Of a stretch of DNA of 64,000 bases, positions 14,536 through 64,000 are shown piece after piece (position 1 is the stretch's first letter; every line of letters begins with the position of its first letter). The notes beneath the pieces were generated by a model that saw only the letters and a program-made list of their open reading frames with translations, did not search any database and had not been told where the DNA came from. The position numbers and the translations under genes were made by a program. The DNA comes from Pseudomonadota bacterium (GTDB taxonomy: Bacteria > Pseudomonadota > Gammaproteobacteria > Burkholderiales > Rhodocyclaceae). Location: positions 1 through 64,000 of the forward strand of contig JAGTRU010000020.1 of NCBI GenBank assembly GCA_018261905.1, given 5' to 3'.

Positions 14536-15068
14536 GCGATATTCCTCGCATTCTCGGCATTGATCCCGGCCTGCGTATCACGGGGTTTGGGGTCATAGAA
14601 AAGCACGGCAACCAACTGATCTACGTGGCCAGCGGCTGCATCAAGTCGAACGACAAGGCGTCCTTGCCGGAGCGCATCAAGACGCTGTTTGCCGGGATCA
14701 GCGAGGTCATCGCGACCTATGCGCCGAACCAGGCGGCGGTGGAAAAGGTCTTCGTCAATGTCAATCCGCAGTCCACGCTGCTGCTCGGCCAGGCGCGCGG
14801 CGCGGCGCTCAGTGCGCTGGTCCATGCCGATCTGGTGGTGGCGGAATATACTGCGCTGCAGGTCAAACAGGCGGTGGTCGGGCATGGCAAGGCGGCCAAG
14901 GAGCAGGTCCAGGACATGGTGGTGCGCCTGCTTTCCCTGCCCGGTTCACCGAGTGCCGATGCGGCCGATGCGCTGGCCTGCGCCATCGCCCATGCCCACG
15001 GCGGGCAGGGGATGGGAGCGCTGGCAACGGCCGGTTATCGCGTTCGTGGCGGCCGCCTGATAGGATGA
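14532..15068 (+). CDS. ruvC: Crossover junction endodeoxyribonuclease RuvC
   Basis: RuvC cleaves Holliday junctions during recombination repair. This 178-residue protein has the RNase H-like core. The catalytic acidic residues sit in [12 protein letters not shown] (Asp near residue 8), the VEKVFVN segment (Glu near 69), and [16 protein letters not shown] (two Asp near 140). ruvA and ruvB follow on the same strand but are split by two other genes. Confidence 0.97.
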
Positions 15069-15072
15069 CGCG

Positions 15073-16023
15073 ATGATCATCGAACCGCAGCTTGCCGCCT
15101 TCTCCAATCCGCTGAGCAAATACGTCGCGGCGACCCGCCCGGCCTTTCTCAGCGTAACCCTGATCGGCAGCCTGATCGGCCTGGCCACGGCGCATTTCAG
15201 CGGCTATCCGATCGATCTGCTGAAAGCCGGACTGACCATTTTCTTTGCCCTGGTCGCCCATGCCGGCGTCAATGTCGTCAATGACTACTACGATGCCCTG
15301 AATGGTTCGGATGCCCTCAATACCGAGCGTCAATTTCCTTTTACCGGCGGCAGTCGCTTCATCCAGAACGGGGTGTTGACCCGGCGGCAAACCGGCCTCT
15401 TCGGTTATGCCCTGCTCGCTTCCGTGGTGCCGCCCGGACTCTGGCTCGCCGCCCATTCGGCGCCGGCTTTGCTACTCATCGGCCTGGCCGGGCTGCTGGT
15501 CGGCTGGGCCTATTCGGCGCCGCCCCTGAAACTGATGAGTCGCGGCGTCGGCGAACTGGCCATCGTCGCCGGCTGGTTGCTGGTCTGCGTCGGTACCGAT
15601 TTCGTCCAGCGTGGCGGTTTTGTCGCCTTGCCGCTGCTCGCCGGTCTGCCCTTTGCCCTGCATGTCGCCAATATCCTCTACATCAACCAGTTTCCCGACC
15701 GCAAGGCGGATGCCGGTGCCGGCAAGCGCACCGTTGTTGTCCGCCTGGGGGCAGAAGCGGCCAAATGGGGTTATCCGCTGATCGCCCTGCTCGCCCATGG
15801 CTGGCTGCTGGCGCTGGTCATCGGCGGACATTTGCCGGGTTACGCACTCATCGCCACGCTGACCCTGGCGCTCTCTCTGTTTGCCAGCACCAGTCTGCTA
15901 CGCGACGCCAACCGGCCGGCCCGTTTGGTGCCGGCCATCAAACAAACCATCCTGGCCGCCAACCTGCACGGCCTGTTACTGGTGGCGGCCCTGCTCGCCG
16001 CTGCCCCGGGAATACCTACATGA
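15073..16023 (+). CDS. UbiA-family prenyltransferase (MenA-like)
   Basis: This is a 316-residue integral membrane prenyltransferase with about eight helices. It has the first Asp-rich motif [17 protein letters not shown] (about residues 69-85) and the second, [21 protein letters not shown] (about 210-230). The overall pattern is closest to 1,4-dihydroxy-2-naphthoate octaprenyltransferase (MenA), which makes demethylmenaquinone. No other menaquinone gene is in the window, so the quinone substrate is uncertain. It lies inside the ruvC-ruvAB cluster; ruvA starts at the last bases of this gene (overlap of 4 bases). Confidence 0.82.
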
Positions 16024-16598
16024 TCGGACGCCTGACCGGCTTATTGCTCGAAAAGAACCCGCCGCAGATCGTTATTGACGTCGGCGGTGTCGGCTACGAA
16101 CTCGACGTGCCGATGAGCACCTTCTACAACCTGCCGGCCAATGGCGAAAAAGCCACCCTGCTCACCCATTTCGCGGTGCGGGAGGACGGCCATTACCTGT
16201 ACGGTTTCCTGACCGAGGCCGAGCGTTTTGCTTTCCGCCAGTTGCTCAAGGTTTCCGGCATCGGTGCCCGCACTGCGCTGTCGGTGCTCTCCGGCCTGTC
16301 GGTCGGCGATCTGGCGGCCGCCGTGGCGCAACAGGAACTCGGTCGGCTGATCAAGATTCCGGGCATTGGCAAGAAGACCGCCGAACGCCTGTTGCTCGAA
16401 CTCAAGGGCAAGCTGGCCGAAACCACCGGCGTTTCCCTGAGCGCGCCGGCCGACGAGGCCCGTCAGGATATTTCGAATGCGCTGCTGGCCCTCGGTTACA
16501 ACGAAAAGGAAGCGGCCTCGGCGATGAAGCTGCTGCCAGCCGATGTCGGTACCTCGGACGGTATCCGTCAGGCCCTCAAGCTGCTCTCGAAAGTCTGA
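16020..16598 (+). CDS. ruvA: Holliday junction branch migration protein RuvA
   Basis: RuvA binds four-way junctions and loads RuvB. The 192-residue protein begins [20 protein letters not shown]. It has the tandem helix-hairpin-helix pieces [18 protein letters not shown] and [21 protein letters not shown]-terminal RuvB-binding domain ends in LKLLSKV. ATG at 16020 overlaps the prenyltransferase stop. The frame is open further upstream, but the family start is clear. Confidence 0.97.
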
Positions 16599-17649
16599 TG
16601 TTTACCGACAACAATCCCCGCCGCCTGGCCCAGATCGCGCTGGTCGTGCTGCTCATCGTCGGTTGTCTGGCCGTTCTGTGGCCGATGATCGGTGCCGTGC
16701 TCTTTGCCTTCGTGGTCTGGCTGTGTACCTGGCGATTCTATTCGGAGACGCTGCTGCCCCGGCTCGGCGGCCGCGATACGCTGGGGGCGTCGCTGATGAC
16801 CCTGTTGCTGATCCTGCTCATGTTGCTGCCCATGAGCTTTCTCGCCGGTAGCCTGGTGAATAGTGCCGACAAGTTGATCGGGCTGGCCAAGCCCTATATC
16901 GAACAAGGTATGCCGCAGGTGCCACCGGCCTGGTTGAGCGGCCTGCCTTTCTTCGGGGGCGAGATCGATACTTTCTGGCACCAGATCGTCAGCAGCCGCG
17001 AGGAATTGAATGCCCTGCTCAAACAACTGATTGCCCCGGCCCGCCAGTTTGCCCTGGTGCTCGGCAGTATTGCCGCGAATGGCCTGCTGCAACTAGCGCT
17101 GGTCCTGTTCGTCGCTTTTTTCCTCTACCGTGACGGCGTCAAGGTCAGTCATGCCCTGCTGGTCGGGGCGCATAAGCTGGGTGGCGAGCTGGGCGAGGAA
17201 ATGCTGGAAAAAACCCGCGACACGGTGATCGGCGTCATGCTCGGCATTGTCGGCACGGCGGCGGCTCAGGGCACGGTGGCGATGCTTGGTTTTCTCATCG
17301 CCGGGGTACCGACGGCGGTGTTGCTCGGTTTTGCCACCTTTTTCCTGTCGATGATCCCGATCGGTCCACCCTTGATCTGGGGCGGCGCCGCCGCCTGGTT
17401 GTACAGTCAGGAGCAAGTCGGCTGGGCGATTTTCATGGCCTTCTACGGCATCTTCGTGATCAGCAGTATCGATAACTTCGTCAAACCCGTCCTGATGGCG
17501 CGGGGCGCCGGCATTTCCATTTTGCTGATCGGTCTCGGCGTGCTCGGCGGGGTGCTGGTTTTCGGCTTCATCGGGATATTTCTCGGGCCGGTGTTGCTCG
17601 CCCTCGGCCATATGTTGTTCGGGCGCTGGACGCGAGAGGAAGACCCCGC

Positions 17650-53079: not shown

Positions 53080-53400
53080 ATGAGCAGCGCGATATATGAG
53101 CGGATGCGGGCCAATCCGAAGTTCCAGGAGTTAGTTGCAAAACGGGGGCGTTTTGCCTGGACATTGGCGTTCGTAGTGTTGAGTATGTTTTACGGTTTTG
53201 TCATGGTCGTGGCCTTTAATCCGGCCGCTCTCGGCCAGCCGGTCAGCGAAGGTTCGATGCTGACGGTCGGCGTGGCCGTCGAACTTTTCATGTTCATTTT
53301 CTTCTGGGCGCTGACGGCGGTTTACGTGAAACGCGCCAATACCGAGTTTGATGCCTTGACCCAGGAAATCGTCAAGGAAGCCTGGAAGGAGAACAAATGA
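53080..53400 (+). CDS. DUF485 membrane protein (YjcH-like)
   Basis: This is a 106-residue protein with two membrane helices (about residues 26-48 and 62-85). It has the conserved N-terminus [31 protein letters not shown]485 proteins are nearly always encoded directly upstream of the acetate symporter actP, as here (four-base overlap). A strong GGGGGAGG site precedes the start. They are thought to assist the symporter, but the role is not established. Confidence 0.93.
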
Positions 53401-55073
53401 TGCGCCGTCTGACTCAACTTACCGCCGCCCTCGGTCTTTTCGCCGTTGCTGCCATGGCTTATGCCGGCGGCCCGCTCGAGGGCATCACCGAAAAGCAGGC
53501 CACCAACTGGCACGCCATCATCATGTTCTGCATCTTCGTCGCGATGACGATGGGCATTACCTACTGGGCGGCCAGCCGCACCAAGTCGACCGCCGATTTC
53601 TATACGGCCGGCGGCGGTATCACCGGCTTCCAGAACGGCATGGCGATCGCCGGCGACTATATGTCGGCGGCCACCTTGCTCGGTCTGACGGCCATGGTCT
53701 ACACCCAGGGCTACGACGGCTACATCTACATGCTGGCCTTCTTCGCCGGCTGGCCGATCATTCTGTTCCTGATGGCCGAACGCCTGCGCAACCTGGGCAA
53801 GTTCACCTTCTCCGACATCACTGCCTATCGCCTGGATCAGGGCAAGGTACGCACCATGGCGGCGATTTCCTCGCTGACCGTGGTTTGCTTCTACCTCATC
53901 GCCCAGATGGTCGGTGCCGGCCAGTTGATCAAGCTGCTCTTCGGCCTCGACTACAACGTCGCGATCTTCGCCGTCGGCATCCTGATGATGGTGTACGTGA
54001 CCTTCGGCGGTATGGTCGCCACGACCTGGGTGCAGATCATCAAGGCCGGCATGTTGTTGTGCGGCGGGACGCTGGTCATGGTCCTGGCCTTCAGCCAGTT
54101 CGACTTCTCCTTCCAGAACCTGCTGGAAAAGGCGACGGCCGTGCATAAGCTGGGTGCCAAGCTGATGTATCCGGGCAGCCTGCTGGCCGATCCGGTGACC
54201 GCCATTTCGCTGGGCCTCGGCCTGATGTTCGGGACGGCCGGCCTGCCGCACATTCTGATGCGCTTCTTCACCGTGACCGACGCCAAGGAAGCCCGCAAAT
54301 CGGTGCTCTACGCTTCCGGTTTCGTCGCCTACTTCTTCAACGTCATCTTCATCATGGGCCTCTGCGGCATCCTGATCGTCGGCCAGACCCCCGAGTTCTT
54401 CGAAGGCGGTGTGGTCGGCGCCAAGATGATTGGCGGCGGCAATATGGTGGCCATGCATCTGGCCAAGGCGGTCGGTGGCAACATGTTGCTCGGCTTCCTG
54501 GCGGCGGTGGCTTTCGCCACCATCCTGGCGGTGGTTTCCGGCCTGGCTTTGGCCGGTGCCTCGGCCATCTCGCATGACCTTTACGCCCGCGTCATCATGA
54601 AGGGGCAGGCTTCGGAGGCGAAGGAAATCCGCGTCTCGAAGATCGCCACCATCTGCCTCGGCTTCGTTGCCATCGTGCTCGGCATCCTGTTCGAAAAGCA
54701 GAACATCGCCTTCATGGTCGGTCTGGCCTTCGGTGTGGCGGCAGCTGCCAACTTCCCGGTGCTCATCCTTTCCATGTACTGGAAGGGCCTGACGACCCGC
54801 GGCGCGCTGTTCGGCGGCTACGGTGGTCTGGTTTCCGCCGTGCTCTTCGTGGTCTTCTCGAAGTCGGTATGGGTCGATGTGCTGCACAATGCAGCCCCGC
54901 TCTTCCCCTACACGCAACCGGCCCTGTTTGCCATGCCGCTTGCCTTCCTGCTCGCCTACATCTTCTCGAAGACCGACTCCAGCGTGCGCGCCGGCAAGGA
55001 AATCGAAGCCTTTGAAGACCAGTATGTGCGGGCCCAGACTGGCTATGGGGCGTCGGGCGCCAGCAGCCACTAG
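53397..55073 (+). CDS. actP: Cation/acetate symporter ActP
   Basis: This is a 558-residue sodium/solute symporter (SSS family) with a signal-like N-terminus and about 13 helices. Family landmarks: [46 protein letters not shown]-type [14 protein letters not shown], and [17 protein letters not shown]. It takes up acetate and related short acids such as glycolate. Acetate is the product of malonate decarboxylation, which fits the mdc genes upstream. A terminator follows. Confidence 0.95.
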
Positions 55074-55091
55074 CTGTTCTCGGCCATGCCC

Positions 55092-55128
55092 AAAAAGCCC
55101 CGACCGGCATGCCGGTCGGGGCTTTTTT
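55092..55128 (+). terminator. Intrinsic terminator after actP
   Basis: A long perfect stem, AAAAAGCCCCGACCGGC/GCCGGTCGGGGCTTTTT around AT, ends in seven T. It cleanly separates actP from the PspA-flotillin cluster. Confidence 0.92.
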
Positions 55129-55204
55129 TGTTTCCGTTTTTGTCATGTTATGGCATAGTCATCGGCGTTCTGGCGAATGTCATAGTTGCGGGGCGCCAAA
55201 TTCG

Positions 55205-55245
55205 TGACATATTATGCCTTGACATTTTATGTCGTTGCTTCTAAT
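55205..55245 (+). promoter_or_regulatory. Upstream region of the PspA cluster with repeated TGACAT motif
   Basis: TGACATATTATG (55205-55216) and TGACATTTTATG (55220-55231) are direct repeats 15 bases apart. The second carries a TTGACA -35 box (55219-55224) and, 15 to 17 bases on, TCTAAT/TAATCT. GACAT-TTT-ATGTC is also a small palindrome. Related pieces (TGTCATGTTATG at 55141, AATGTCATAG at 55178) lie upstream. This could be a regulator-controlled promoter for the gene at 55290. Confidence 0.5.
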
Positions 55246-55289
55246 CTGGGTTCGAGGCAGTACGCTTCTTTTAATGACAAGGGAAAGAA

Positions 55290-55709
55290 ATGGAACAGTC
55301 GCTGAGAGACAAACTGGATGGCCTGGATACTATTGTCGGGGTGCTGATGGGGGGGCTGGCTGTGCAGTTGCACCCGATTCCCGGACCGGTACCCGTCGTC
55401 CAGGTCAGCATCGAAGGTCGTGAGGAATTGCCGATCTATGTGACCTGCTCGGACTCGCAAATACTTTGCCTGTGCTACCTGTGGAATGACAGCGAAGTAC
55501 TGGCGGAGCGCCGCACGGAGTTGCTCGAAACCCTGCTCGATCTGAATCCCTCGGTGCCGCTTTCATCCTTTGGCCGCGTCGGCGAGCGCTACGTGCTGTT
55601 CGGCGCCCTGGCGTTGAATGCCAGGCCCGCCGATATTGCCGAAGACATCGCCGCTCTCAGCGACAACGCGCTCGACGCCCTCGAAGCCTTGTCCGAATTC
55701 TTGCAGTGA
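55290..55709 (+). CDS. YjfI-like protein (DUF2170)
   Basis: This is a 139-residue protein matching DUF2170, represented by E. coli YjfI, which is encoded next to the PspA-like YjfJ. It has MEQSLRDKLDGLDTIVGVLMG-like start pieces and LLETLLDLNPSVPLSSFGRVG. It is 12 bases upstream of pspA. Known function: none. Linkage suggests it takes part in the same membrane-stress module. Confidence 0.85.
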   Translation: MEQSLRDKLDGLDTIVGVLMGGLAVQLHPIPGPVPVVQVSIEGREELPIYVTCSDSQILCLCYLWNDSEVLAERRTELLETLLDLNPSVPLSSFGRVGERYVLFGALALNARPADIAEDIAALSDNALDALEALSEFLQ

Positions 55710-55721
55710 CAGGAGAAGATC

Positions 55722-56429
55722 ATGTCCATGATTAAGAAAGTCGTAACCCTGCTGCGCGGCAGTGCCCGCGAGATCGCCGAAAACGTCGTCGATGCCAATG
55801 CAACGCGCATCTACGAACAGGAAATCATCGATGCCAAGCAGAGCATCCTCGAAGCGCGCAGCAGCCTGGCCGATGTCATGGCCAGGGAAATGCAGGCCGG
55901 CCGGGCGGTGACCCGGCTGGAAGGCGAGATTGCCCATTTTGAAAGTCTGGCCCTGGAAGCCCTGAACAAGACTCAGGAAGCCCTGGCCGAGGAAGTCGCC
56001 GGCAAGGTGGCGGCGCTCGAACAGGATCTGGAAGAGCAGCGCAAGGCGCGGCAGTCGTTTGCCAGCCAGGTCAGCCAACTCAAGGAACTGATCAAGGCGG
56101 CCGAGGCGAAGATCCGCGAGCATGAGCGCGAAATCGCCATCGCCAAGACGACGGAAAGCGTTTACAAGGCAACCCAGTCGATCTCCGACAACATCGGCCA
56201 CAGCGGTTCCCGCCTGGCCAGCGCCCGCGAGTCGCTGGAGCGCATCAAGCAGCGCCACGAACATCTGGCGGATCGTCTGCAGGCCAGCGAGCAACTGGAT
56301 CGCGAACTGGGCGACAAGGCGCTGGCCAGCAAGCTGGCCGAGGCCGGTATTGGTCAGGATGCCAATCGTCAGCGTCAGGTCATGGAACGCCTCCGGGCCC
56401 GCCAGGCAAAACCGACGGACGACCAGTGA
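55722..56429 (+). CDS. PspA/IM30-family membrane-stress protein (YjfJ-like)
   Basis: This is a 235-residue, nearly all-helical ESCRT-III-like protein. The N-terminal amphipathic part starts MSMIKKVVTLLRGSAREIAENVVDANATRIYEQEI. A long coiled coil (about residues 30-195) contains LEQDLEEQRKARQSFASQVSQLKELIKAAEAK. It should bind and stabilise damaged inner membrane by forming rods or rings. No pspF, pspB or pspC is nearby, so this is the yjfJ-type rather than the classical psp operon. It overlaps the next gene by four bases. Confidence 0.93.
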   Translation: MSMIKKVVTLLRGSAREIAENVVDANATRIYEQEIIDAKQSILEARSSLADVMAREMQAGRAVTRLEGEIAHFESLALEALNKTQEALAEEVAGKVAALEQDLEEQRKARQSFASQVSQLKELIKAAEAKIREHEREIAIAKTTESVYKATQSISDNIGHSGSRLASARESLERIKQRHEHLADRLQASEQLDRELGDKALASKLAEAGIGQDANRQRQVMERLRARQAKPTDDQ

Positions 56430-56755
56430 GCGTCAAGCAGAGACCGGCCCGCTGGCAAAGTTCCGATGCGGCGCTCAAGGCCGTGCAGGTGGCTTTCGAC
56501 GTCGAGGAAAAGGTGCTCGAAACCGTGCGCCGCACGGCCTTTGAAGAGAACCGCTCTACCTCGGACCAGATCCGCCATCTGCTCGGCCTGACCACGGCCA
56601 GCCGCCCGAAACGGCCGCGTCTGACGGTTTCGCTGACCGTCGCCGATTACGCCGTGCTGGGCGAGCGCTACGGTCTGGCCGTCGATGACCGGCTGGCGAT
56701 CAAGGAGCGGGTGACCCGGGAATTGATCGATTTTGCCAATGCCACAAAAGGGTAA
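56426..56755 (+). CDS. Hypothetical protein, possible tandem ribbon-helix-helix
   Basis: This 109-residue protein starts with GTG 56426 and overlaps the pspA stop. It has no recognised family. Two halves look alike in layout: a strand (AVQVAFD), helix (VEEKVLETVRRTAFEEN), helix (TSDQIRHLLG); then strand (RLTVSLT), helix (VADYAVLGERYGL), helix (RLAIKERVTRELIDF). This is the strand-helix-helix pattern of RHH DNA-binding proteins, joined by the basic linker ASRPKRP. It could be the local regulator, or a scaffold. This is an inference from sequence only. Confidence 0.6.
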   Translation: MSVKQRPARWQSSDAALKAVQVAFDVEEKVLETVRRTAFEENRSTSDQIRHLLGLTTASRPKRPRLTVSLTVADYAVLGERYGLAVDDRLAIKERVTRELIDFANATKG

Positions 56756-56761
56756 ACAGGA

Positions 56762-57406
56762 ATGACCAGCTTCTACGACGCCGCCATCTCCTTTCCAACA
56801 GTCATCTATACAACGCTGCTTGGCGTGGTCATGGTGTACTGGCTGCTTGCCCTGGTCGGCATTGTCGATTTCGAGTCCACCAATTTGGATATGGATAGTG
56901 ACTTGCATGCCGACGCGCATGTCGATGAAATCAGCGATTTGGCCAGCTATCTCGTTGCCCTGGGTTTGAACGGCGTGCCGTTTTCGGTGGTATTCACGTT
57001 GCTCACGGTATTCGCCTGGACGACGACCTGTCTGGCCGCCATGTGGCTTTTGCCCTTGGTGCCGACCACGTTGTTGCGCACGGTAGCTGGCCTGGGCGTG
57101 CTGGTCGGTGGCTTGGGTCTGGCACTGCCGCTGACCGCCAGGATGATCCGTCCGATGCGCGGCCTTTTCGTGACCCATACCGCGATGTCGAATGCGGCCC
57201 TGGTCGGCCAGAGCTGCCGGGTGCTGACCTCCAGCGTCGACGAAAAATTCGGGCGCGCCGAGGTGGCAACCCGGGGGGCCGGCGTCAATATCAAGGTCTG
57301 GGCGGAAACGCCCAACAGCCTGAGCAAGGGCTCGACGGCCCGCATTCTGGAACACGATGCGGCCGGGGAGCGCTACCTCATCGTCGCCGAAGAACACATC
57401 CAGTAA
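56762..57406 (+). CDS. YqiJ-like membrane protein with OB-fold (DUF1449)
   Basis: This 214-residue protein has an N-terminal membrane helix (about residues 14-37), an acidic loop with DMDSDLHADAHVDE, and further helices (about 70-95 and 102-128). A C-terminal OB-like domain (about 140-214) contains LVGQSCRVLTSSVDEKFGRAEV. YqiJ is encoded next to the flotillin YqiK in E. coli; the same pair occurs here with 45 bases between. It is a NfeD-type partner of membrane microdomain proteins, by analogy. Confidence 0.85.
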   Translation: MTSFYDAAISFPTVIYTTLLGVVMVYWLLALVGIVDFESTNLDMDSDLHADAHVDEISDLASYLVALGLNGVPFSVVFTLLTVFAWTTTCLAAMWLLPLVPTTLLRTVAGLGVLVGGLGLALPLTARMIRPMRGLFVTHTAMSNAALVGQSCRVLTSSVDEKFGRAEVATRGAGVNIKVWAETPNSLSKGSTARILEHDAAGERYLIVAEEHIQ

Positions 57407-57451
57407 TTCATTACTTTTTCAATCCATTCAAACGTAAGCAAGGGGAAATTC

Positions 57452-59557
57452 ATGGAGCCGGTTCTATTTGCCGTTGGTGTGCTGGTATTGCTCATCCTCG
57501 GCATGATCGCCCTGTTCGCCAAGTTCTATCACAAGGTCGAGCAAGGCTACGCGATGATCGTCAACACGCTGCGGGCCGAACCCGAAGTCACCTTCACCGG
57601 GCGCATGGTCTATCCGATCATCCACAAGTCCGAGCTGATGGAAATTTCGCTGAAGACCATCGAAATCGACCGCTCCGGCGGCGAGGGCCTGATCTGTCGC
57701 GACAACATCCGGGCCGATATCAAGGTCAAGTTTTTCGTGCGGGTTAACAAGACGGCCGAAGACGTGCTCAAGGTCGCCCAGGGCATCGGTTGCGAACGCG
57801 CTTCCAGCCCGGAAATCCTCGAAGACCTGTTTTCTGCCAAGTTCTCGGAAGCGCTGAAGACGGTTGGCAAGGCAATGGATTTCATCGACCTGTACCAGGC
57901 CCGCGACCGCTTCCGCGACGAAATCGTGCGCCAGATCGGCGACGATCTCTCGGGCTATGTGCTCGAAGATGCCGCCATCGACTACCTGGAACAGACGCCG
58001 CTGCAAAAGCTCGATACCAACAACATCCTCGATGCCCAGGGCATCAAGAAGATTACCGAACTGACGGCCGTCGAACACGTTCGCACCAATGAACTGCGCC
58101 GCAACGAGGAAATGCAGATCAAGAAAAAGGACGTCGAGACCCAGGAAGCCCTGCTCGAACTCGAACGCCAGCAGGCCGATGCGACATCGCGTCAGAAGCG
58201 CGAGGTCGCTTCGGTGCGGGCCCGCGAAGAAGCCGAGACGGCGAAGATCCAGTCGGAAGAACTGACCAAGTCGGAAGTGGCACGCCTGCAGGCCGAGCAG
58301 ACCATCGCCGTGCAACAGGAAAATGCCCAGCGCGAGAAGGAAGTGGCGGAAAACAACCGCAAGCGCGCGGTTGCCGTCGAAGAGGAAAAGGTCACCCGGG
58401 CGCGCGAACTGGAAATCGTTGATCGCGAGAAGGAAGTCACCCTGCAGCGCATCGACAAGGACAAGGCTGTCGAAGTGCAGAAGAAAGCCATCGCCGACGT
58501 CATCCGCGAACGGGTCATCGTCGAGCGCACGGTCGCCGAGCAGGAAGAAGCGATCAAGGAAGTCCGTGTCGTGGCCGAGGCCGACCGCACCAAGAAATCG
58601 GTAGTGATCCTCGCCGAAGGCCAGGCTGAAGAAAAGCTGGTGCTCGAAGTCAAAGCCGCCGAAGCCCAGGAGCGCCGGGCCCGCCACAAGGCGGCCGAGG
58701 AGCAGACCCTGGCCGAAGCTCATCTCAAGGTGGCCGAGAAGGAATCCGAAGCCAAGAAACGCGAAGCCGAAGGCCTCGAAGCCATGGCTGCTGCGACCGG
58801 TCTGGCGACGGCCAGGGTGATGATGGTCACGGCCGACGCCGAAGAAAAGCAGGGCATGGTTGCCGCCAAGATCAAGATGGCCGATGCCGAAGCGGTCACC
58901 AAATTCGGCACGGCCGAGGCGGACGCCTTGCTTGCCAAGCTCGAAGCCGAAGCCCAGGGTAAGGAAAAACTTGGTCTGGCCGATGTCGTCGTGCGCACGG
59001 CCGATGCCGATGCCACCGCCAAGGCCGGCCATGCCGAAGCCGAAGTCATCGAGGCACGCTTCCAGGCCGAAGCCAATGGCCTGCGCGAGAAGTTCGGGGC
59101 GATGAGTTCCATGAGCCCGGCGGCCCGCGAGCACGAAGAGTTCCGCATGCGTCTGGACAATGCCCAGATCGCCACCCTCAAGGCGATCGACGCGCAAACC
59201 TCGATTGCCCGCGACCAGGCCGAAGTGCTCGGTGCGGCGCTGGCCAATGCCAAGATCGATATCGTCGGCGGCGAGGGCGATTACTTCGACCGCTTCGTCA
59301 ATGCGCTGTCAATCGGCAAGGGTATCGACGCAACCATCGGCAAGAGCAGCACGCTGCAGGTCGCCCTCAAGGATCACCTGAGTGGCGAGCGCGACATGGT
59401 CGGCGATGTCCGCGACATGATCGGCGCCCTGGGTGGTTCGGCCGGCGAATTGCAGAATCTGTCGGTCGCCGCCCTGCTCAGCAAGGTGACGCGCGAAGGC
59501 AGTGCCGAGCAGCAGGATGCCTTGCGCACCCTGCTTGCCGGCCTGGCCAAGCGCTAA
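57452..59557 (+). CDS. Flotillin-family membrane protein (YqiK-like)
   Basis: This is a 701-residue protein with one N-terminal membrane helix (about residues 3-27). A Band 7/SPFH domain follows (about 28-200, with MVYPIIHKSELMEISLKTIEI and DNIRADIKVKFFVRV). A very long Glu/Ala/Lys-rich coiled coil (about 200-570) contains 'AEA'-type repeats such as TADADATAKAGHAEAEV. The flotillin C-terminal domain is at about 600-701. It should form large membrane-microdomain assemblies. Pairing with YqiJ and PspA fits a membrane-integrity role. Confidence 0.94.
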   Translation: MEPVLFAVGVLVLLILGMIALFAKFYHKVEQGYAMIVNTLRAEPEVTFTGRMVYPIIHKSELMEISLKTIEIDRSGGEGLICRDNIRADIKVKFFVRVNKTAEDVLKVAQGIGCERASSPEILEDLFSAKFSEALKTVGKAMDFIDLYQARDRFRDEIVRQIGDDLSGYVLEDAAIDYLEQTPLQKLDTNNILDAQGIKKITELTAVEHVRTNELRRNEEMQIKKKDVETQEALLELERQQADATSRQKREVASVRAREEAETAKIQSEELTKSEVARLQAEQTIAVQQENAQREKEVAENNRKRAVAVEEEKVTRARELEIVDREKEVTLQRIDKDKAVEVQKKAIADVIRERVIVERTVAEQEEAIKEVRVVAEADRTKKSVVILAEGQAEEKLVLEVKAAEAQERRARHKAAEEQTLAEAHLKVAEKESEAKKREAEGLEAMAAATGLATARVMMVTADAEEKQGMVAAKIKMADAEAVTKFGTAEADALLAKLEAEAQGKEKLGLADVVVRTADADATAKAGHAEAEVIEARFQAEANGLREKFGAMSSMSPAAREHEEFRMRLDNAQIATLKAIDAQTSIARDQAEVLGAALANAKIDIVGGEGDYFDRFVNALSIGKGIDATIGKSSTLQVALKDHLSGERDMVGDVRDMIGALGGSAGELQNLSVAALLSKVTREGSAEQQDALRTLLAGLAKR

Positions 59558-59567
59558 AGGGCCGCGC

Positions 59568-60119
59568 ATGCTTGTTGCCAACGCACTGGCCTGCGAATGT
59601 GGCGCCGGGCTGCTCTGCGGGGCGCTGGCCGAAGGCCTGCCGGCCCGGGTCTGCCCGGCCTGTGGCGGCGTCCTGCTGGCGCTCGACGATTATCGGGTCT
59701 GGCGCCAGACCCTGCCGCCGGGCGCTGCCGAAACACCGGCCGGCCTGGCGATCGTCGGCGAGGATGCCAGCCGGGCCCGCAGTTGCCCGGCCTGCAGCGG
59801 CCCGATGGCGCGCTATCGCGTGCTGCCGGTCAGCAGTTTCCGGCTCGATCGCTGCAATCACTGCCAGCTGGTCTGGTTTGATGGTGGCGAATGGTCGGCG
59901 CTCGTCGAGGCTGGTCTGATCGATCGCCTGGACAGCATTCTGGCCGATGGCTGGCAACGCCGGGTGCAGGCCGACGAAGCGCGCTTGCGCCGGGAAAATG
60001 CCTTGCGCCAGCGCCTGGGCGACGCGGCCGTCGATGAACTGCAACGCATCCAGTCCTGGCTGCACAGCCGGCCGAATGGCCGGGAATTGCTCGCGCTTCT
60101 GAGCGGCGAGCCCATTTGA
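59568..60119 (+). CDS. Zinc-ribbon protein (zf-TFIIB-like)
   Basis: This is a 183-residue protein from ATG 59568. Two Cys clusters are seen: an N-terminal one (CECG and CPACGG, about residues 9-34) and a middle one (SCPACSGPM with CNHCQLVWFDGGEW, about 70-105) that matches the zf-TFIIB ribbon. The rest is helical, ending in LLALLSGEPI. It lies 10 bases after the flotillin and 25 before the giant ATPase. It may be an adaptor. No known function. Confidence 0.78.
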   Translation: MLVANALACECGAGLLCGALAEGLPARVCPACGGVLLALDDYRVWRQTLPPGAAETPAGLAIVGEDASRARSCPACSGPMARYRVLPVSSFRLDRCNHCQLVWFDGGEWSALVEAGLIDRLDSILADGWQRRVQADEARLRRENALRQRLGDAAVDELQRIQSWLHSRPNGRELLALLSGEPI

Positions 60120-60144
60120 ACTGAATTCAGGGGCAACCCACGTC

Positions 60145-63100
60145 ATGGCTTCCACGAATACGTCTGCATCCGAAACCTCTGCCGAGCGGACCGACAGCAT
60201 GGTCGGCGACAGCGGCAGCTACGAGCTGCTGAAAAAGCGCCTGGGCAGCCATGGCGATGCCCTGCTCGGCAAGGCGCAGGCCCTCAATGCGGCGCGCGTT
60301 GCCGAATTCGGCCGCAACGAGCAGTCGCTAATCCTGCGCACCCGGGCCCGCACCGAGAACAACTGCGTCGCCCGCGACATCGTCCGCATCGGCGACCGCC
60401 TGCTCTTCGGCTACAACGTCTTCATCGGCCTGCGCAAGGAAACCGCGGTCGGCGACGTCTTCGCCCTCTACCGGCTGGCCGAGGCGGGCGGCGGCGACGA
60501 ACTCGAAGCGCTGCCGCTGACCGGCAGCTTCCTCGAGGACCAGCGCTTCGTTTCCGATTTCCGCGAACTGCACGCCTATTACAAGCAGGCGACGCTGATC
60601 CAGTTGCGCGTCACCCAGGACAAGCTGCTCGCCGCCTTCCAGATCGGCCAGCAACTGCACGACCTGCGCGTCTTCCGCTGGAGCCTGGAAAACGACGGCA
60701 GCCTGCGCTACATCGACAACCGCGGCGAGCGCGACATGGCGCTGCCGCCGAGCCATGATTTCGAATGGACGCCGACCCGGCGCGAAGACCAGGTCGGCGG
60801 CCGCCATCCGCACGTCAACATTCTCGACACGGTCTTCGTCGAAACCATCGGCGGCGACCTGACGGTCAAGATCGAAAACAACACCGAGAGCGGGCTCGGC
60901 ATCTACAGCGAAGCGGTCGAGGACAAGACCCAGTCGCTCGACGACGCCGAAGTCGCCTACGCCCGGCTCGGCCTGCTGATCCTGCTGCGCATCAAGCCCT
61001 ACCGCGAGCAGACGGTACGCTACCTGGTCTACAACACGCGCACGCAAAGCGTCACCCGCATCGACGCCATCGGCGTCTCCTGCATCCAGTTGCCGGAAGA
61101 CCACGGCATCATCTTCCCCGGTGGCTACTACCTGCAGTCCGGCGAGTACAAGCGCTTCGACCTGCCGGAGGCGATGCTCGACAACCTGCGCTTCAAGCGC
61201 GTCCTGCGCTCGCCGAACGGCGAGGATGTGCTCTACGTCTTCTATCAGCCGGGCCTCGGCCATTACGCGCTGTTTACCTACAACCTGATCGACAAGACGC
61301 TGGGCGCGCCGATTCTCGGCAATGGCTACGCCCGCTTCCCGGACGGCCGCATCCTGGTTTTCCAGGCCGATGGCGGCGAGCCGACCCGCGTGCATCCGAT
61401 GCAGCTATGGCAGACGCCCTTCTTCAGCGAAGAGCATGCCGGCAAGCAGGCCGCCGGGCAGGGCTTCTTCGGCCGCATCGGCAACGCCGACCTGGTGCGC
61501 GGCATTTCCGAGCTGAACGGCATCGCCCGCGCCGTGCGCGAGCAGGTGCCGACGCGCACCGCCTACGAAGACCTGATCCGCCAGTGCAGCCGTGCCCAGG
61601 ACGCCTATTTCTGGTTATCCGAACCCGAGGCCGGCGGTCTCGGCAAGGAATTGCAGGCGATTACCGAAGGTGCCCGCCTGACCCTGGCCGAATTCGAGAA
61701 GGTCGACAGCATCCGCCGCGAAACGGCCCAGGCTCTGGCCGCCGCCGAAGGCGAGCAGCGCGAGTTGCTGGGCCAGATCGCCGGCATGTTGTGGAAGCGC
61801 TCGGACGATTTCGTCATGGCCCTGAATCGCCTGCGCGAACGCCGCGGCCGCCTGCAGACCCTGAAGGAATTGCGCTACGTCGATCTGCCGCGCATCGAGG
61901 CGATGGACGGCGAACTGGCCAACGAGCAAAACCGGGTCGGCGAGCGCGCCATGCAGTTTCTCGCCTCGCCCGACGCCTTTGCCGGCCAGCGCCAGCTGCT
62001 CGAAGGTCTGGCCGCGCAGGTGCCGGTTGCCGCCACCTCACAGGCGCTTGAACAACTGGTCGGCGAACTCGACACGGCCGCCGCCGGCCTCGACCTGCTC
62101 AGCGAGCAACTGGGCGGCCTGCCGGGCGGCGATGCGGTGGTACGCACTGATATTCTTGACCGCATTTCCGTGCTTTACGCCGAGATCAATCGCCTGCGTG
62201 CCGAGGCGCGCAATCGCAAGCGCAATCTGGGCAGCAGCGAAGCGGCGGCGGAATTCGGCGCCCAGTTCAAGCTGTTCGGCCAGACCGTCGAAAGCGCCCT
62301 GGAATTCGCCGACACCCCGGAAAAGTGCGACGACGCGCTGACCCGCCTGCTCGCCCGCCTCGAAGAACTGGAAGGGCGTTTCGCCGAACAGGAAGCCTTC
62401 GTCGCCGATATCGCCAGCAAGCGCGAAGCCGTTTATGAAGCCCTCTCGGCGCGCCGGCAAAGCCTGCTCGAAACACGGCAGCGGCGCATCCGCTCGCTGT
62501 CCGAAGCCGGCGCCCGGATTCTCGAAGGCGTGCCGCGCCGGATTGCCCAGTTCGGCGAAATCGCCGAGGTGCATGGCTATTTCGCGGCCGATCCGCTGAT
62601 CGGCAAGCTGCGCAAGCTGGTCTACGACCTGCGCGGGCTCGGCGACGGCGTCGCGGCCGACGATCTCGACACGCGCATCAAGACGGCGCGCGACCAGGCC
62701 CTGCGCACCGTGCGCGACCGCAGCGAACTGCTCGGCGAGGACGGCAACACCCTGCGTTTCGGCCGGCACGCCTTCACCGTCAGCCAGCAGGCGCTGGATC
62801 TCACGCTGGTGCCCAAGGAAGGCAGCCTGGCCTGGCATCTGTCGGGCACCGACTACTTTGCTACGGTCAACCCGGAAAAACTCGAAAAATTCAAATTCCT
62901 CTGGGACCAGTCCCTGGTTTCCGAATCGCCCGATCTGGCGAGGGCCGAATACCTGGCCGGTACGCTCCTGCATCTCGCGCTGAACACGTTGGAAGGCTTT
63001 TCCTGGGCCGGCCTGCAACAGACGGCGGCCGGCGCGCCGACGGCCTTGCTCGACCTGGTCCGCCAGTTTGCCGCGGCGCGTTACCGCGAGGGTTATCAGA

Positions 63101-64000
63101 AAGGCATCCACGATGAGGACGCAGCACGCCTGCTGGCGGCGCTGATCGCCATGCAGGGCGAAGCCGGGCTGCTCGCCTGGGGCCCGCGCCAGCGCGTTCT
63201 GGCCCTACTCTACTGGCAGCACGGCGGTTTCGTTGCCGAGCGCGAAGCCTTGCTGCGTCAGGCCCGTGCCGCCCTGCAAATGCAGCAGCAATTCGCCGCC
63301 GGTGAGGCGCTGGCCCGCCTGGAAGCCGATGTGGCGCGCGCGCTGCAGGTCTTTGCCAAGGAATTTGCCGGCGAGCCCGATTCCGGGCGGATTTTTGCCA
63401 CCGAACCCGACCAGTTGCCGGTGCTTTTTGCCCAGTCGGCGGCCTATCTGGTTCGCCAACTGGCCGCCGAGCGCGGCGAGGCCAACTGGGTGATCTCCGG
63501 TCCCGGTGACGATCTGGCCGCAGCGTTGATCAAGGAACTCGAACGTACCCAGCACTACGCCGAGTGGCGCAACGACATCGACAGCGCCGAGCCGGCCGAG
63601 CGCTGGCGGCTGGTCCGCGCCTGGGTGGCCGCCTTCGCCGCTGCGCAGATGCCGCAGGCTGCTGACTGGATCGACGACGCCGCCGGCAAGCTGGTCGCCG
63701 CCGCATTGCCCCGGCGCCGCGTCAATGCGACCCTGGCGGTCAATGTCGAGGCCTTGCGCAGCGATCACCCGCGTATCGTCGACGGGCAACTGGCGCTCAA
63801 TCTCAACGATTTCTGGCAACGCTTCCATGCCCACCGCACGCAGATCGTGCCGGCCTTCGAGCAGTTCCACCAATTGCGGCGCGAGATGCTCGATGCCGAA
63901 AAAGCCAAGCTCGGCATCGCCCAGTTCCAGGCCAAGCCCTTGTCGACCTTCGTGCGCAATCGCCTGATCGACGAGGTTTACCTGCCGCTGCTCGGCGACA
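60145..64000 (+). CDS. Giant DUF3686 / 'DNA repair ATPase'-like protein, cut by the window end
   Basis: An uninterrupted frame runs from ATG 60145 (MASTNTSASETSAERTDSM) to the last base: at least 1,285 residues and no stop. The N-terminal half (about residues 20-450) matches, in my recollection, DUF3686 of proteins annotated 'DNA repair ATPase', with NARTENNCVARDIV-like RTRARTENNCVARDIVRIG and EDHGIIFPGGYYLQSGEYK. Coiled-coil segments lie near 480-560 and 590-790. No Walker A motif is seen yet, so the AAA+ module is expected beyond the window. It has no signal peptide or membrane helix. Context ties it to PspA and flotillin rather than to repair. Confidence 0.8.
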   Translation, partial: MASTNTSASETSAERTDSMVGDSGSYELLKKRLGSHGDALLGKAQALNAARVAEFGRNEQSLILRTRARTENNCVARDIVRIGDRLLFGYNVFIGLRKETAVGDVFALYRLAEAGGGDELEALPLTGSFLEDQRFVSDFRELHAYYKQATLIQLRVTQDKLLAAFQIGQQLHDLRVFRWSLENDGSLRYIDNRGERDMALPPSHDFEWTPTRREDQVGGRHPHVNILDTVFVETIGGDLTVKIENNTESGLGIYSEAVEDKTQSLDDAEVAYARLGLLILLRIKPYREQTVRYLVYNTRTQSVTRIDAIGVSCIQLPEDHGIIFPGGYYLQSGEYKRFDLPEAMLDNLRFKRVLRSPNGEDVLYVFYQPGLGHYALFTYNLIDKTLGAPILGNGYARFPDGRILVFQADGGEPTRVHPMQLWQTPFFSEEHAGKQAAGQGFFGRIGNADLVRGISELNGIARAVREQVPTRTAYEDLIRQCSRAQDAYFWLSEPEAGGLGKELQAITEGARLTLAEFEKVDSIRRETAQALAAAEGEQRELLGQIAGMLWKRSDDFVMALNRLRERRGRLQTLKELRYVDLPRIEAMDGELANEQNRVGERAMQFLASPDAFAGQRQLLEGLAAQVPVAATSQALEQLVGELDTAAAGLDLLSEQLGGLPGGDAVVRTDILDRISVLYAEINRLRAEARNRKRNLGSSEAAAEFGAQFKLFGQTVESALEFADTPEKCDDALTRLLARLEELEGRFAEQEAFVADIASKREAVYEALSARRQSLLETRQRRIRSLSEAGARILEGVPRRIAQFGEIAEVHGYFAADPLIGKLRKLVYDLRGLGDGVAADDLDTRIKTARDQALRTVRDRSELLGEDGNTLRFGRHAFTVSQQALDLTLVPKEGSLAWHLSGTDYFATVNPEKLEKFKFLWDQSLVSESPDLARAEYLAGTLLHLALNTLEGFSWAGLQQTAAGAPTALLDLVRQFAAARYREGYQKGIHDEDAARLLAALIAMQGEAGLLAWGPRQRVLALLYWQHGGFVAEREALLRQARAALQMQQQFAAGEALARLEADVARALQVFAKEFAGEPDSGRIFATEPDQLPVLFAQSAAYLVRQLAAERGEANWVISGPGDDLAAALIKELERTQHYAEWRNDIDSAEPAERWRLVRAWVAAFAAAQMPQAADWIDDAAGKLVAAALPRRRVNATLAVNVEALRSDHPRIVDGQLALNLNDFWQRFHAHRTQIVPAFEQFHQLRREMLDAEKAKLGIAQFQAKPLSTFVRNRLIDEVYLPLLGD

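What the first reader, a model, noticed from the sequence alone, without database searches (positions are those of the whole stretch)
55290..64000. PspA-flotillin-OB-fold-zinc-ribbon-giant ATPase cluster as one membrane-stress machine
Seven co-directional genes between a strong terminator and the window end combine YjfI/DUF2170, PspA, an unrecognised small protein, YqiJ, YqiK flotillin, a zinc-ribbon protein and a giant ATPase-like protein. The gaps are 45 bases or less, and two adjacent genes overlap. In E. coli the yjf and yqi genes are at separate places, so here two modules are merged. ESCRT-III-like PspA needs an energy source to be remodelled in some systems; the giant protein is a candidate. 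The combined function is, to my knowledge, undescribed.
Basis: partly seen in the sequence, partly recalled or inferred. Interest (0 to 1): 0.85.

Follow-up and report, generated by a model that had tools for sequence, protein, structure and literature searches.

The report
Flotillin–ATPase stress operon with own regulator
This is a nine-gene bacterial operon in which a membrane-platform protein (flotillin), a giant molecular motor and the membrane-repair protein PspA are made together; the gene set is already known, but its small unrecognised gene and a matching DNA site in the promoter look like the operon's own on/off control.

Summary
The cluster is real and continues past the window: nine tightly packed genes, with the ATPase's P-loop, a phospholipase D and a CorA-like gene beyond base 64000. 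The composite operon is not undescribed: Ravi et al. 2024 describe it, and the P. aeruginosa bacABCDEF operon looks like the same system. Among 75 relatives, YqiJ-like + flotillin + ATPase is the fixed core (74 of 75). YjfI–PspA is a frequent front module (48–49 of 75); of 25 genomes whose locus lacks it, 8 have no PspA match anywhere. PspA is therefore unlikely to be the motor's obligatory substrate; the AAA+ fold looks nearer MoxR-type than Vps4. New here: the unrecognised 109-aa protein is predicted to be a tandem ribbon-helix-helix protein, and goes with a palindrome, GACATNNNATGTC, at the operon's −35 (18 of 18 loci; 0 of 32 without it). Loci without it fuse a MazE-like extension to YjfI and carry TYACATGTRA (30 of 32; 0 of 18). 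I propose two interchangeable autorepressors; published loss of BacA raises the other Bac proteins 6–13-fold, as this predicts. DNA binding, repression and the motor's substrate are inferred, not shown.

The parts
55092..55127 (+). intrinsic terminator of the upstream gene; separates it from this operon
   Evidence: 16-bp stem, 10 GC pairs, T tail
55219..55247 (+). predicted promoter: TTGACA (55219-55224), 17-nt spacer, TAATCT (55242-55247)
   Evidence: TTGACA at the operator in 16 of 18 small-protein loci, TAnnnT at the same spacing in 14 of 18; the consensus scan listed no promoter here
55221..55233 (.). operator A, GACATTTTATGTC, overlapping the -35
   Evidence: upstream of yjfI in 18 of 18 loci with the small protein, 0 of 32 yjfI loci without it; TTGACATNNTATGTC occurs once exactly, and once more with one mismatch, in the 4.9-Mb genome
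55206..55218 (.). second, imperfect operator A copy (one mismatch), 15 bp upstream
   Evidence: same 15-bp spacing in L022, L023 and L041
55290..55709 (+). yjfI (DUF2170, CesT/Tir-like chaperone fold in the literature), short form without N-terminal extension
   Evidence: PF09938 E 2.5e-27
55722..56429 (+). pspA (YjfJ-like)
   Evidence: PF04012 E 1.2e-34; 29% identical to E. coli YjfJ
56426..56755 (+). 109-aa predicted tandem ribbon-helix-helix protein, proposed autoregulator; overlaps pspA by 4 nt
   Evidence: E-H-H-E-H-H in the model, pLDDT 71.7; best Foldseek hits AvtR and single-chain Arc, E 0.3-0.6; co-occurs with operator A
56762..57406 (+). YqiJ-like membrane protein
   Evidence: position; hhalign to E. 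coli YqiJ 68%; 74 of 75 loci
57452..59557 (+). flotillin/SPFH protein (YqiK relative)
   Evidence: BLASTP 30% over 436 aa with E. coli YqiK; 74 of 75 loci
59568..60119 (+). zinc-ribbon protein (accessory; position varies among relatives)
   Evidence: PF13453 E 1.1e-10; alignment A6
60145..64000 (+). giant AAA+ protein, N-terminal 1285 of 1761 residues (DUF3686, DUF7902); gene ends at window-equivalent 65430, followed by PLD (65427-66149) and CorA-like (66146-66895) outside the window
   Evidence: Walker A/B and sensor motifs near-invariant in 77 relatives

Best explanation
A dedicated envelope-stress operon. Its machine is a membrane platform (YqiJ-like protein plus flotillin) worked on by a giant AAA+ protein: inferred to sit beneath the membrane, the motor uses its long N-terminal arms (propeller and coiled coil, after Ravi et al.) to engage flotillin-scaffolded complexes and its MoxR-like ring to remodel or dismantle them. 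YjfI (a CesT/Tir-type chaperone) and PspA (a membrane-coating ESCRT-III relative) form a front module that brings the platform to damaged membrane; PLD, zinc ribbon and CorA-like proteins are accessories. Expression is self-limited: the 109-aa protein, a tandem ribbon-helix-helix, binds GACATNNNATGTC across the -35 and shuts the promoter; stress relieves it, possibly through YjfI. In relatives the same job is done by a MazE-like DNA-binding extension fused to YjfI, acting on TYACATGTRA. Shown here: gene order, core, operators and their match with the two regulator types. Inferred: DNA binding, repression, the signal, and the motor's substrate.
For: Core: YqiJ-like and flotillin in 74 of 75 loci with at least 6.5 kb upstream; the exception, L011, has both on another contig. 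In the class sample the flotillin (E up to 1e-50) is in 7 of 7 ATPase genomes and 1 of 267 others. Front module: yjfI 48 and pspA 49 of 75; DUF2170 in 7 of 7 and 12 of 267; in 12 of 12 randomly drawn ATPase genomes other than the window's own. Regulator: operator A in 18 of 18 loci with the small protein and 0 of 32 without; operator B in 30 of 32 and 0 of 18; elsewhere in the scanned loci A 2 and B 1 in 1.81 Mb; backward patterns 0 of 51. Loci not used to find the motifs: A upstream in 7 of 7 small-protein loci (L116, L120, L124, L126, L127, L129, L130), B in 2 of 2 long-YjfI loci (L112, L113). Operator A contains the -35 in 16 of 18. Small protein E-H-H-E-H-H; YjfI extension MazE-like in 13 of 20 at E up to 0.1, best 3.2e-4. 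Published: loss of BacA raises the other five Bac proteins 6.1- to 13.5-fold (passage). AAA+ fold nearest NorQ/CbbQ, best E 5.9e-7.
Against: No binding or expression data for this genome. The small-protein model is only fair (pLDDT 71.7, pTM 0.60), no Foldseek match passes E 0.001, the two halves do not align by sequence (hhalign E 0.053), and its profile against PDB sequences finds a designed protein (E 1.1e-5, no stretch passing alone), four Vps4 N-terminal chains (E 0.26-0.28) and only then AvtR (0.72). Three further yjfI loci have neither regulator type nor either operator (L121, L125, L128). Of 6 ATPase-bearing genomes of the own family, G419 has no TTGACATNNTATGTC. Operator A beside an ATPase locus whose yjfI-pspA is elsewhere was seen in only 1 of 7 split genomes with operator A. 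Eight genomes have the core with no PspA match. The bac authors propose a sigma-54 promoter and a chaperone-like regulatory route for BacA. Pfam's AAA (PF00004) and AAA_5 both pass their cut-offs, and sequence similarity of the AAA+ profile to solved chains is mostly at the P-loop, where classical AAA proteins score. MoxR-type function and flotillin as substrate are inference.
Confidence: 0.6

Rival explanations
1. One reading: the giant ATPase is a Vps4-like motor that remodels PspA polymers, and flotillin/YqiJ only anchor it.
For: YjfI 48 and PspA 49 of 75 loci; YjfI in 12 of 12 randomly drawn ATPase genomes other than the window's own, half of them in trans, with PspA beside it in trans in most; Ravi et al. 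2024 suggest ATP-dependent remodelling by analogy with ESCRT (section 19; passages); classical AAA (PF00004) passes its cut-off.
Against: 8 of 25 genomes with PspA-less loci have no PF04012 match, and none of these 8 has DUF2170; no MIT domain match in the ATPase; fold nearest NorQ/CbbQ, with no Vps4 or p97 among the 50 rows shown; YqiJ-like and flotillin kept in 74 of 75.
Confidence: 0.2
2. Loose stress island: core and YjfI-PspA module are co-transcribed for convenience and act separately.
For: The front module comes and goes on the ATPase tree (15 changes of 'none', 12 forced by starred branches); split genomes exist; only 1 of 7 split genomes shares operator A.
Against: Co-occurrence in 7 of 7 and 12 of 12; the same tight order in distant groups; the bac operon is one transcript (passage).
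Confidence: 0.12
3. The operators are real but are bound by another factor; the 109-aa protein does something else.
For: The link is by co-occurrence only; the structure match is weak.
Against: Operator type follows regulator type in two unrelated regulator kinds; one exact TTGACATNNTATGTC in the genome, as for a dedicated local regulator; Ravi et al. note a ribbon-helix-helix gene at the end of a sister operon.
Confidence: 0.12
4. Pfam's name is right and the giant protein is a DNA-repair ATPase with an unrelated neighbourhood.
For: PF12458 is titled 'ATPase involved in DNA repair'; a RuvB_N match below cut-off at the P-loop and RuvB among the fold matches.
Against: Near-invariant neighbours are membrane genes; no paper in the library holds 'DUF3686', or 'DNA repair ATPase' together with 'flotillin'.
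Confidence: 0.03

Closest known systems
CesT/Tir-PspA + band-7/flotillin + AAA+ operon (Ravi et al. 2024, PMC11237479; section 19 read, other passages seen)
   Same: YjfI-PspA dyad, flotillin, beta-propeller/coiled-coil AAA+, YqiJ/YuaF protein, PLD in some Proteobacteria; abbreviated forms without PspA also noted there.
   Different: In the text seen no zinc ribbon, CorA-like gene, ribbon-helix-helix gene or operator is given for this group; an RHH gene is given for the polyamine-type group. Figures and supplementary tables were not seen.
bacABCDEF operon of Pseudomonas aeruginosa (PMC2587700, passages; PMC10948618, passages and section 36)
   Same: Six genes in one transcript, BacA of the YjfI/DUF2170 family, BacB PspA-like; 8 of 10 complete Pseudomonas/Stutzerimonas loci here have six genes, yjfI-pspA-yqiJ-flot-ATPase-PLD, the other two lacking PLD.
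   Different: Pseudomonas-type YjfI has the N-terminal extension and its loci have operator B; the window has short YjfI, the 109-aa protein and operator A. That bacE/bacF are the ATPase and PLD is inferred from order, not checked by sequence.
E. coli yjfIJKLM and yqiJK
   Same: Homologous YjfI, PspA (YjfJ) and flotillin; YqiJ by profile only.
   Different: Separate loci and no ATPase beside either in the 10-kb stretches shown.
MoxR-type AAA+ (NorQ, CbbQ)
   Same: Best fold matches of the AAA+ model.
   Different: Giant N-terminal part; no VWA domain among the Pfam hits of the nine gene products.
AvtR and single-chain Arc (recalled as tandem ribbon-helix-helix proteins)
   Same: Among the top three Foldseek targets of the 109-aa model; order E-H-H-E-H-H.
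   Different: E-values 0.3-0.6; other hosts and operators.

Membership tests
CesT/Tir-PspA-flotillin-AAA+ operon class (Ravi et al. 2024) | YjfI(DUF2170)-PspA dyad | tested here: met
   PF09938 and PF04012 above cut-off
CesT/Tir-PspA-flotillin-AAA+ operon class (Ravi et al. 2024) | flotillin/band-7 protein | tested here: met
   30% over 436 aa with E. coli YqiK, though no Pfam hit at E 0.1
CesT/Tir-PspA-flotillin-AAA+ operon class (Ravi et al. 2024) | YqiJ/YuaF-type membrane protein | tested here: inconclusive
   hhalign 68%; 1 of 19 relatives hits YqiJ_N
CesT/Tir-PspA-flotillin-AAA+ operon class (Ravi et al. 2024) | AAA+ module at the C-terminus of a long protein | tested here: met
   DUF3686 + AAA above cut-off, Walker A/B present
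CesT/Tir-PspA-flotillin-AAA+ operon class (Ravi et al. 2024) | N-terminal beta-propeller and coiled coil | not tested
   the N-terminal part was not modelled; taken from the paper
classical Psp (pspF/pspABC) | PspB, PspC or PspF in the operon | tested here: not met
   none among Pfam hits of the nine gene products
classical Psp (pspF/pspABC) | PspA equivalog (TIGR02977) | tested here: not met
   19.1 bits against a cut-off of 242.95
ESCRT-III/Vps4 | MIT domain on the AAA protein | tested here: not met
   no MIT match in the 1761-aa protein at E 0.1
ESCRT-III/Vps4 | classical AAA clade | tested here: inconclusive
   fold favours MoxR-type; PF00004 passes, as does AAA_5; P-loop sequence hits favour classical AAA
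MoxR-type AAA+ | MoxR-like fold of the AAA+ module | tested here: inconclusive
   NorQ/CbbQ on top, best E 5.9e-7, TM 0.48-0.57 on the target; RuvB, MCM and ClpB/X also match; model of a relative, pLDDT 78.9, pTM 0.59
ribbon-helix-helix proteins | strand-helix-helix unit(s) | tested here: met
   E-H-H-E-H-H in the model, pLDDT 71.7; Pfam RHH hits weak, each in 1-2 of 15 members
ribbon-helix-helix proteins | recognised fold match to a solved member | tested here: inconclusive
   AvtR, single-chain Arc at E 0.3-0.6
ribbon-helix-helix proteins | binds operator DNA | not testable with these tools
   only co-occurrence with operator A
Pseudomonas BacA equivalog (NF050185) | score over 300 bits | tested here: not met
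   window YjfI 39.9 bits; L112 YjfI 356.9 bits, met

The most novel reading that the evidence does not exclude
A PspF-free Psp circuit in which a chaperone gates the repressor: YjfI (CesT/Tir fold) senses free versus membrane-engaged PspA and controls DNA binding, either in cis (MazE-like domain fused to YjfI, operator TYACATGTRA) or in trans through the separate tandem-RHH protein (operator GACATNNNATGTC). The two regulator-operator pairs replace each other in front of the same machine. The published DUF2170 crystal chain (146 aa, matching residues 64-205 of a full-length relative) would then lack the DNA-binding part.
Probability: 0.35. Interest if true: 0.75.

Novelty: new variant of a known kind. 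Interest (0 to 1): 0.52.

Why it matters
It corrects two readings: the operon is known, and the giant protein's fixed partners are flotillin and the YqiJ-like protein rather than PspA; and 'ATPase involved in DNA repair' is a misleading family title for a gene that sits with membrane genes. It adds a candidate regulator and operator that are simple to test, and gives a plain reason for a published result (loss of BacA raises the other Bac proteins). How a bacterial ESCRT-III relative without PspF in its operon is switched on, and which motor if any works with it, become directly testable.

Tried and rejected
Vps4-like PspA disassembly as the main reading: set back by genomes without PspA and the fold. 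Defence system: PADLOC hits are weak matches for PspA, one weak IetA match at the ATPase P-loop, and PLD-type matches (DrmC and others) for the PLD gene. RNA element: none over Rfam cut-offs in 54800-64000. Internal sequence repeat in the small protein: not found, so 'tandem' rests on the model. A shared regulon for split loci as the rule: only G139 of seven. Off-target motif rate: 8 of 150 family genomes carry TTGACATNNTATGTC; 5 sites are the yjfI promoters of this operon already in hand, 3 (G385, G399, G308) lie next to none of the seven protein families searched. Random samples of other phyla could not be drawn. PspB/PspC/PspF elsewhere in the genome were not searched, and sigma-54 sites were looked for only by eye.

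Limits. Counts come from the 80 best loci plus 12 unnamed loci, not a random draw; 17 of 92 were dropped for short upstream sequence. The class and phylum samples include the window's own genome, and G139 is in both. The flotillin search scored at most 4 candidates a genome and used a strict cut-off, so its absences are not firm. One search left out 11 loci with neither yjfI nor yqiJ and dropped 4 (L037, L048, L066, L104) for short upstream sequence; its 27 'yqiJ-first' loci include L071, which has pspA before yqiJ. The search patterns include the P-loop, so its conservation is partly by construction. The tree is FastTree only. Motifs were first seen by eye in the listing, then counted on the same loci; one search is the only test on new loci. 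In L116 the PspA match is weak (E 3.7e-4).

Full report
What is there. A strong terminator ends the upstream gene. The contig continues to 71266, so the rest could be read: the giant protein is 1761 aa, with DUF3686 (41-489), DUF7902 (610-693) and an AAA module whose Walker A starts at residue 1309, outside the window. A PLD (PF13091) gene and a CorA-like gene (PF01544, below cut-off, with a GMN motif by eye) follow, each overlapping its predecessor by 4 nt. The operon is thus nine genes, window-equivalent 55290-66895.

Names. YjfI (PF09938) and PspA (PF04012) are clear. PspA is 29% identical to E. coli YjfJ and does not reach the PspA equivalog model. The flotillin hits no Pfam model at E 0.1, but E. 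coli YqiK aligns over 436 residues at 30%, so the YqiK kinship holds. The YqiJ name is weaker: no pairwise match, a profile match of 68%, 1 of 19 relatives hitting YqiJ_N.

Already in print. Section 19 of Ravi et al. 2024 (PMC11237479, read) describes CesT/Tir(YjfI)-PspA joined to a flotillin, a new AAA+ with propeller and coiled coil, YqiJ/YuaF, and PLD in some Proteobacteria, plus abbreviated forms without PspA. The P. aeruginosa bac operon (passages of PMC2587700 and PMC10948618, section 36 of the latter) has BacA of the YjfI family, a PspA-like BacB, a 23-kDa membrane protein and a 76-kDa protein, and six genes on one transcript. Of 10 complete Pseudomonas/Stutzerimonas loci fetched here, 10 have yjfI-pspA-yqiJ-flotillin-ATPase and 8 add PLD. 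That bacE and bacF are ATPase and PLD is inferred from this order. 'DUF3686' is in no paper of the library.

Distribution. DUF3686 occurs in 7 of 274 class genomes, 6 of 150 own-family genomes (0 of 3 other same-genus genomes) and 8 of 398 phylum genomes, the window's own counted each time: patchy.

Core and front module. Of 92 loci, 75 have 6.5 kb or more upstream of the ATPase. Of these 75, on the same strand upstream: YqiJ-like 74, flotillin 74, PspA 49, YjfI 48, the 109-aa protein 16, zinc ribbon 12; in one more, L099, yjfI-pspA-small is divergent. Of 74 loci with 3 kb downstream, PLD 28, CorA-like 6, zinc ribbon 3. The one exception to the core (L011, G233) has YqiJ-like and flotillin genes on another contig. 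In the class sample the flotillin (E up to 1e-50) is in 7 of 7 ATPase genomes and 1 of 267 others; DUF2170 in 7 of 7 and 12 of 267 (Fisher p 4e-13 and 2e-9, without correction for shared ancestry). Of the 12 randomly drawn ATPase genomes other than the window's own, 12 have YjfI: 6 beside the ATPase (L012, L013, L014, L112, L113, L116) and 6 elsewhere (G139, G233, G240, G463, G605, G550). But of the 25 genomes (22 named, 3 unnamed) whose ATPase locus has no pspA, 17 have PspA elsewhere and 8 have no PF04012 match; none of those 8 has DUF2170, and 6 of the 8 record titles are not marked MAG. On the ATPase tree 'no front module' changes 15 times, 12 of them forced by starred branches.

The motor. 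Walker A/B, sensor 1 and two arginines are near-invariant in 77 relatives. The model of the C-terminal 538 residues of a relative (L029; pLDDT 78.9, pTM 0.59) is nearest NorQ and CbbQ, MoxR-type AAA+, with RuvB, MCM and ClpB/X behind; no Vps4 or p97 is in the 50 rows shown of 893. By sequence, PF00004 (classical) and AAA_5 both pass, and matches to solved chains are mostly at the P-loop of classical AAA and RuvB. I lean to MoxR-type, with reserve. No MIT domain was found.

The unrecognised protein and its operator. Fifteen sequences align. The model reads strand-helix-helix twice (pLDDT 71.7); AvtR and single-chain Arc, which I recall as tandem ribbon-helix-helix folds, lead the Foldseek list at E 0.3-0.6. 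The halves do not align by sequence, and against PDB sequences the profile gives a designed protein, then Vps4 N-terminal chains at E 0.26-0.28, then AvtR at 0.72; I take these as chance. In 12 of 19 loci with both genes it overlaps pspA by 4 nt. Upstream of yjfI, 18 of 18 loci with this protein carry GACATNNNATGTC and none carries TYACATGTRA; of 32 yjfI loci without it, 0 carry the first and 30 the second, 21 of them at least twice; of 27 loci without yjfI, examined before yqiJ, 1 and 0. In the remaining 1.81 Mb of these loci the motifs occur 2 and 1 times. Backward patterns: 0 of 51. The palindrome includes TTGACA in 16 of 18 loci, with TAnnnT 17 nt further in 14 of 18: the position of a repressor. 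In the own genome TTGACATNNTATGTC occurs once exactly. On loci not used before, the operator is upstream of yjfI in 7 of 7 with the small protein; 2 of 2 long-YjfI loci have the second motif; three short-YjfI loci (L121, L125, L128) have neither regulator nor motif, so a third state exists. In the own family, 5 of 6 ATPase genomes have the site; G419, whose contig starts inside the flotillin gene, has none. The four Burkholderiales loci without the front module that could be examined (L028, L032, L036, L038) have neither the protein nor the operator.

The other regulator type. The 32 loci without the protein have a YjfI longer by about 60 residues, with SSAHYQRxYRxRLREQGLVKKEVWILPEN or close to it at the start (31 of 32 by pattern, L065 by eye). 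Of 20 such extensions scanned, 13 match MazE-like (PF11455) at E up to 0.1, best 3.2e-4. The Pseudomonas model NF050185 (BacA, 206 positions) covers the extension in L112, while the solved DUF2170 chain 8q8o starts after it. The bac authors found BacB-BacF raised 6.1- to 13.5-fold without BacA and spoke of negative control. That is what an autorepressor predicts; they proposed sigma-54 and a chaperone-like route instead. I found no operator named in the two papers' text ('operator' 0 times in Ravi et al., 'repressor', 'DNA-binding' and 'palindrom' 0 times in the BacA paper), nor, in the listing, another paper tying ribbon-helix-helix to YjfI and PspA.

Where the evidence stops. Split genomes test the one-system idea: in G139 both the yjfI-pspA-small locus and the yqiJ-flotillin-ATPase locus carry the operator; in six other genomes with operator A at yjfI or pspA, the ATPase locus lacks it. 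So when apart they are usually not one regulon. Binding, repression, the inducing signal and the motor's substrate all remain to be measured.

Verdict. In its gene list a member of a described operon class; new in its candidate regulator and operator, and in showing what the motor's fixed partners are.

Noticed in passing
L002:13637-14353 and 14724-16670 (window-equivalent 67637-70670): Two further ORFs with no Pfam hit share by eye a C-terminal stretch (AYVVLK.FTYPSGL...); apparent paralogous domain of unknown kind downstream of the operon.
   Followed up: no
window 53397-55073: Upstream ORF looks by eye like a sodium-coupled solute symporter; closed by the terminator.
   Followed up: no
L012, L013, L015, L042, L050, L068, L099: The zinc-ribbon gene wanders: between flotillin and ATPase, divergent upstream, or downstream; some copies lack cysteines that others have.
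   Followed up: partly
L120, L126, L127, L129, L130: In split genomes the RHH-type gene follows yjfI-pspA and a third gene, which in L120 is DUF4178-like just below cut-off (only L120 scanned); same operator A in front. This ties the regulator to Ravi's polyamine-type group as well.
   Followed up: partly
L015 (G139): The ATPase gene of this relative holds one in-frame TGA although the motifs downstream are intact.
   Followed up: no
L104 (Methylomonas MAG): A copy of the 109-aa protein lies after the ATPase instead of after pspA; no operator A on the contig, which starts inside yqiJ.
   Followed up: no
L122 (G233): Operator A lies before a pspA gene with no yjfI on the contig; the genome's yjfI (L121) has neither operator.
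   Followed up: no
PF12458: The family title 'ATPase involved in DNA repair' does not fit the conserved membrane-gene context.
   Followed up: partly
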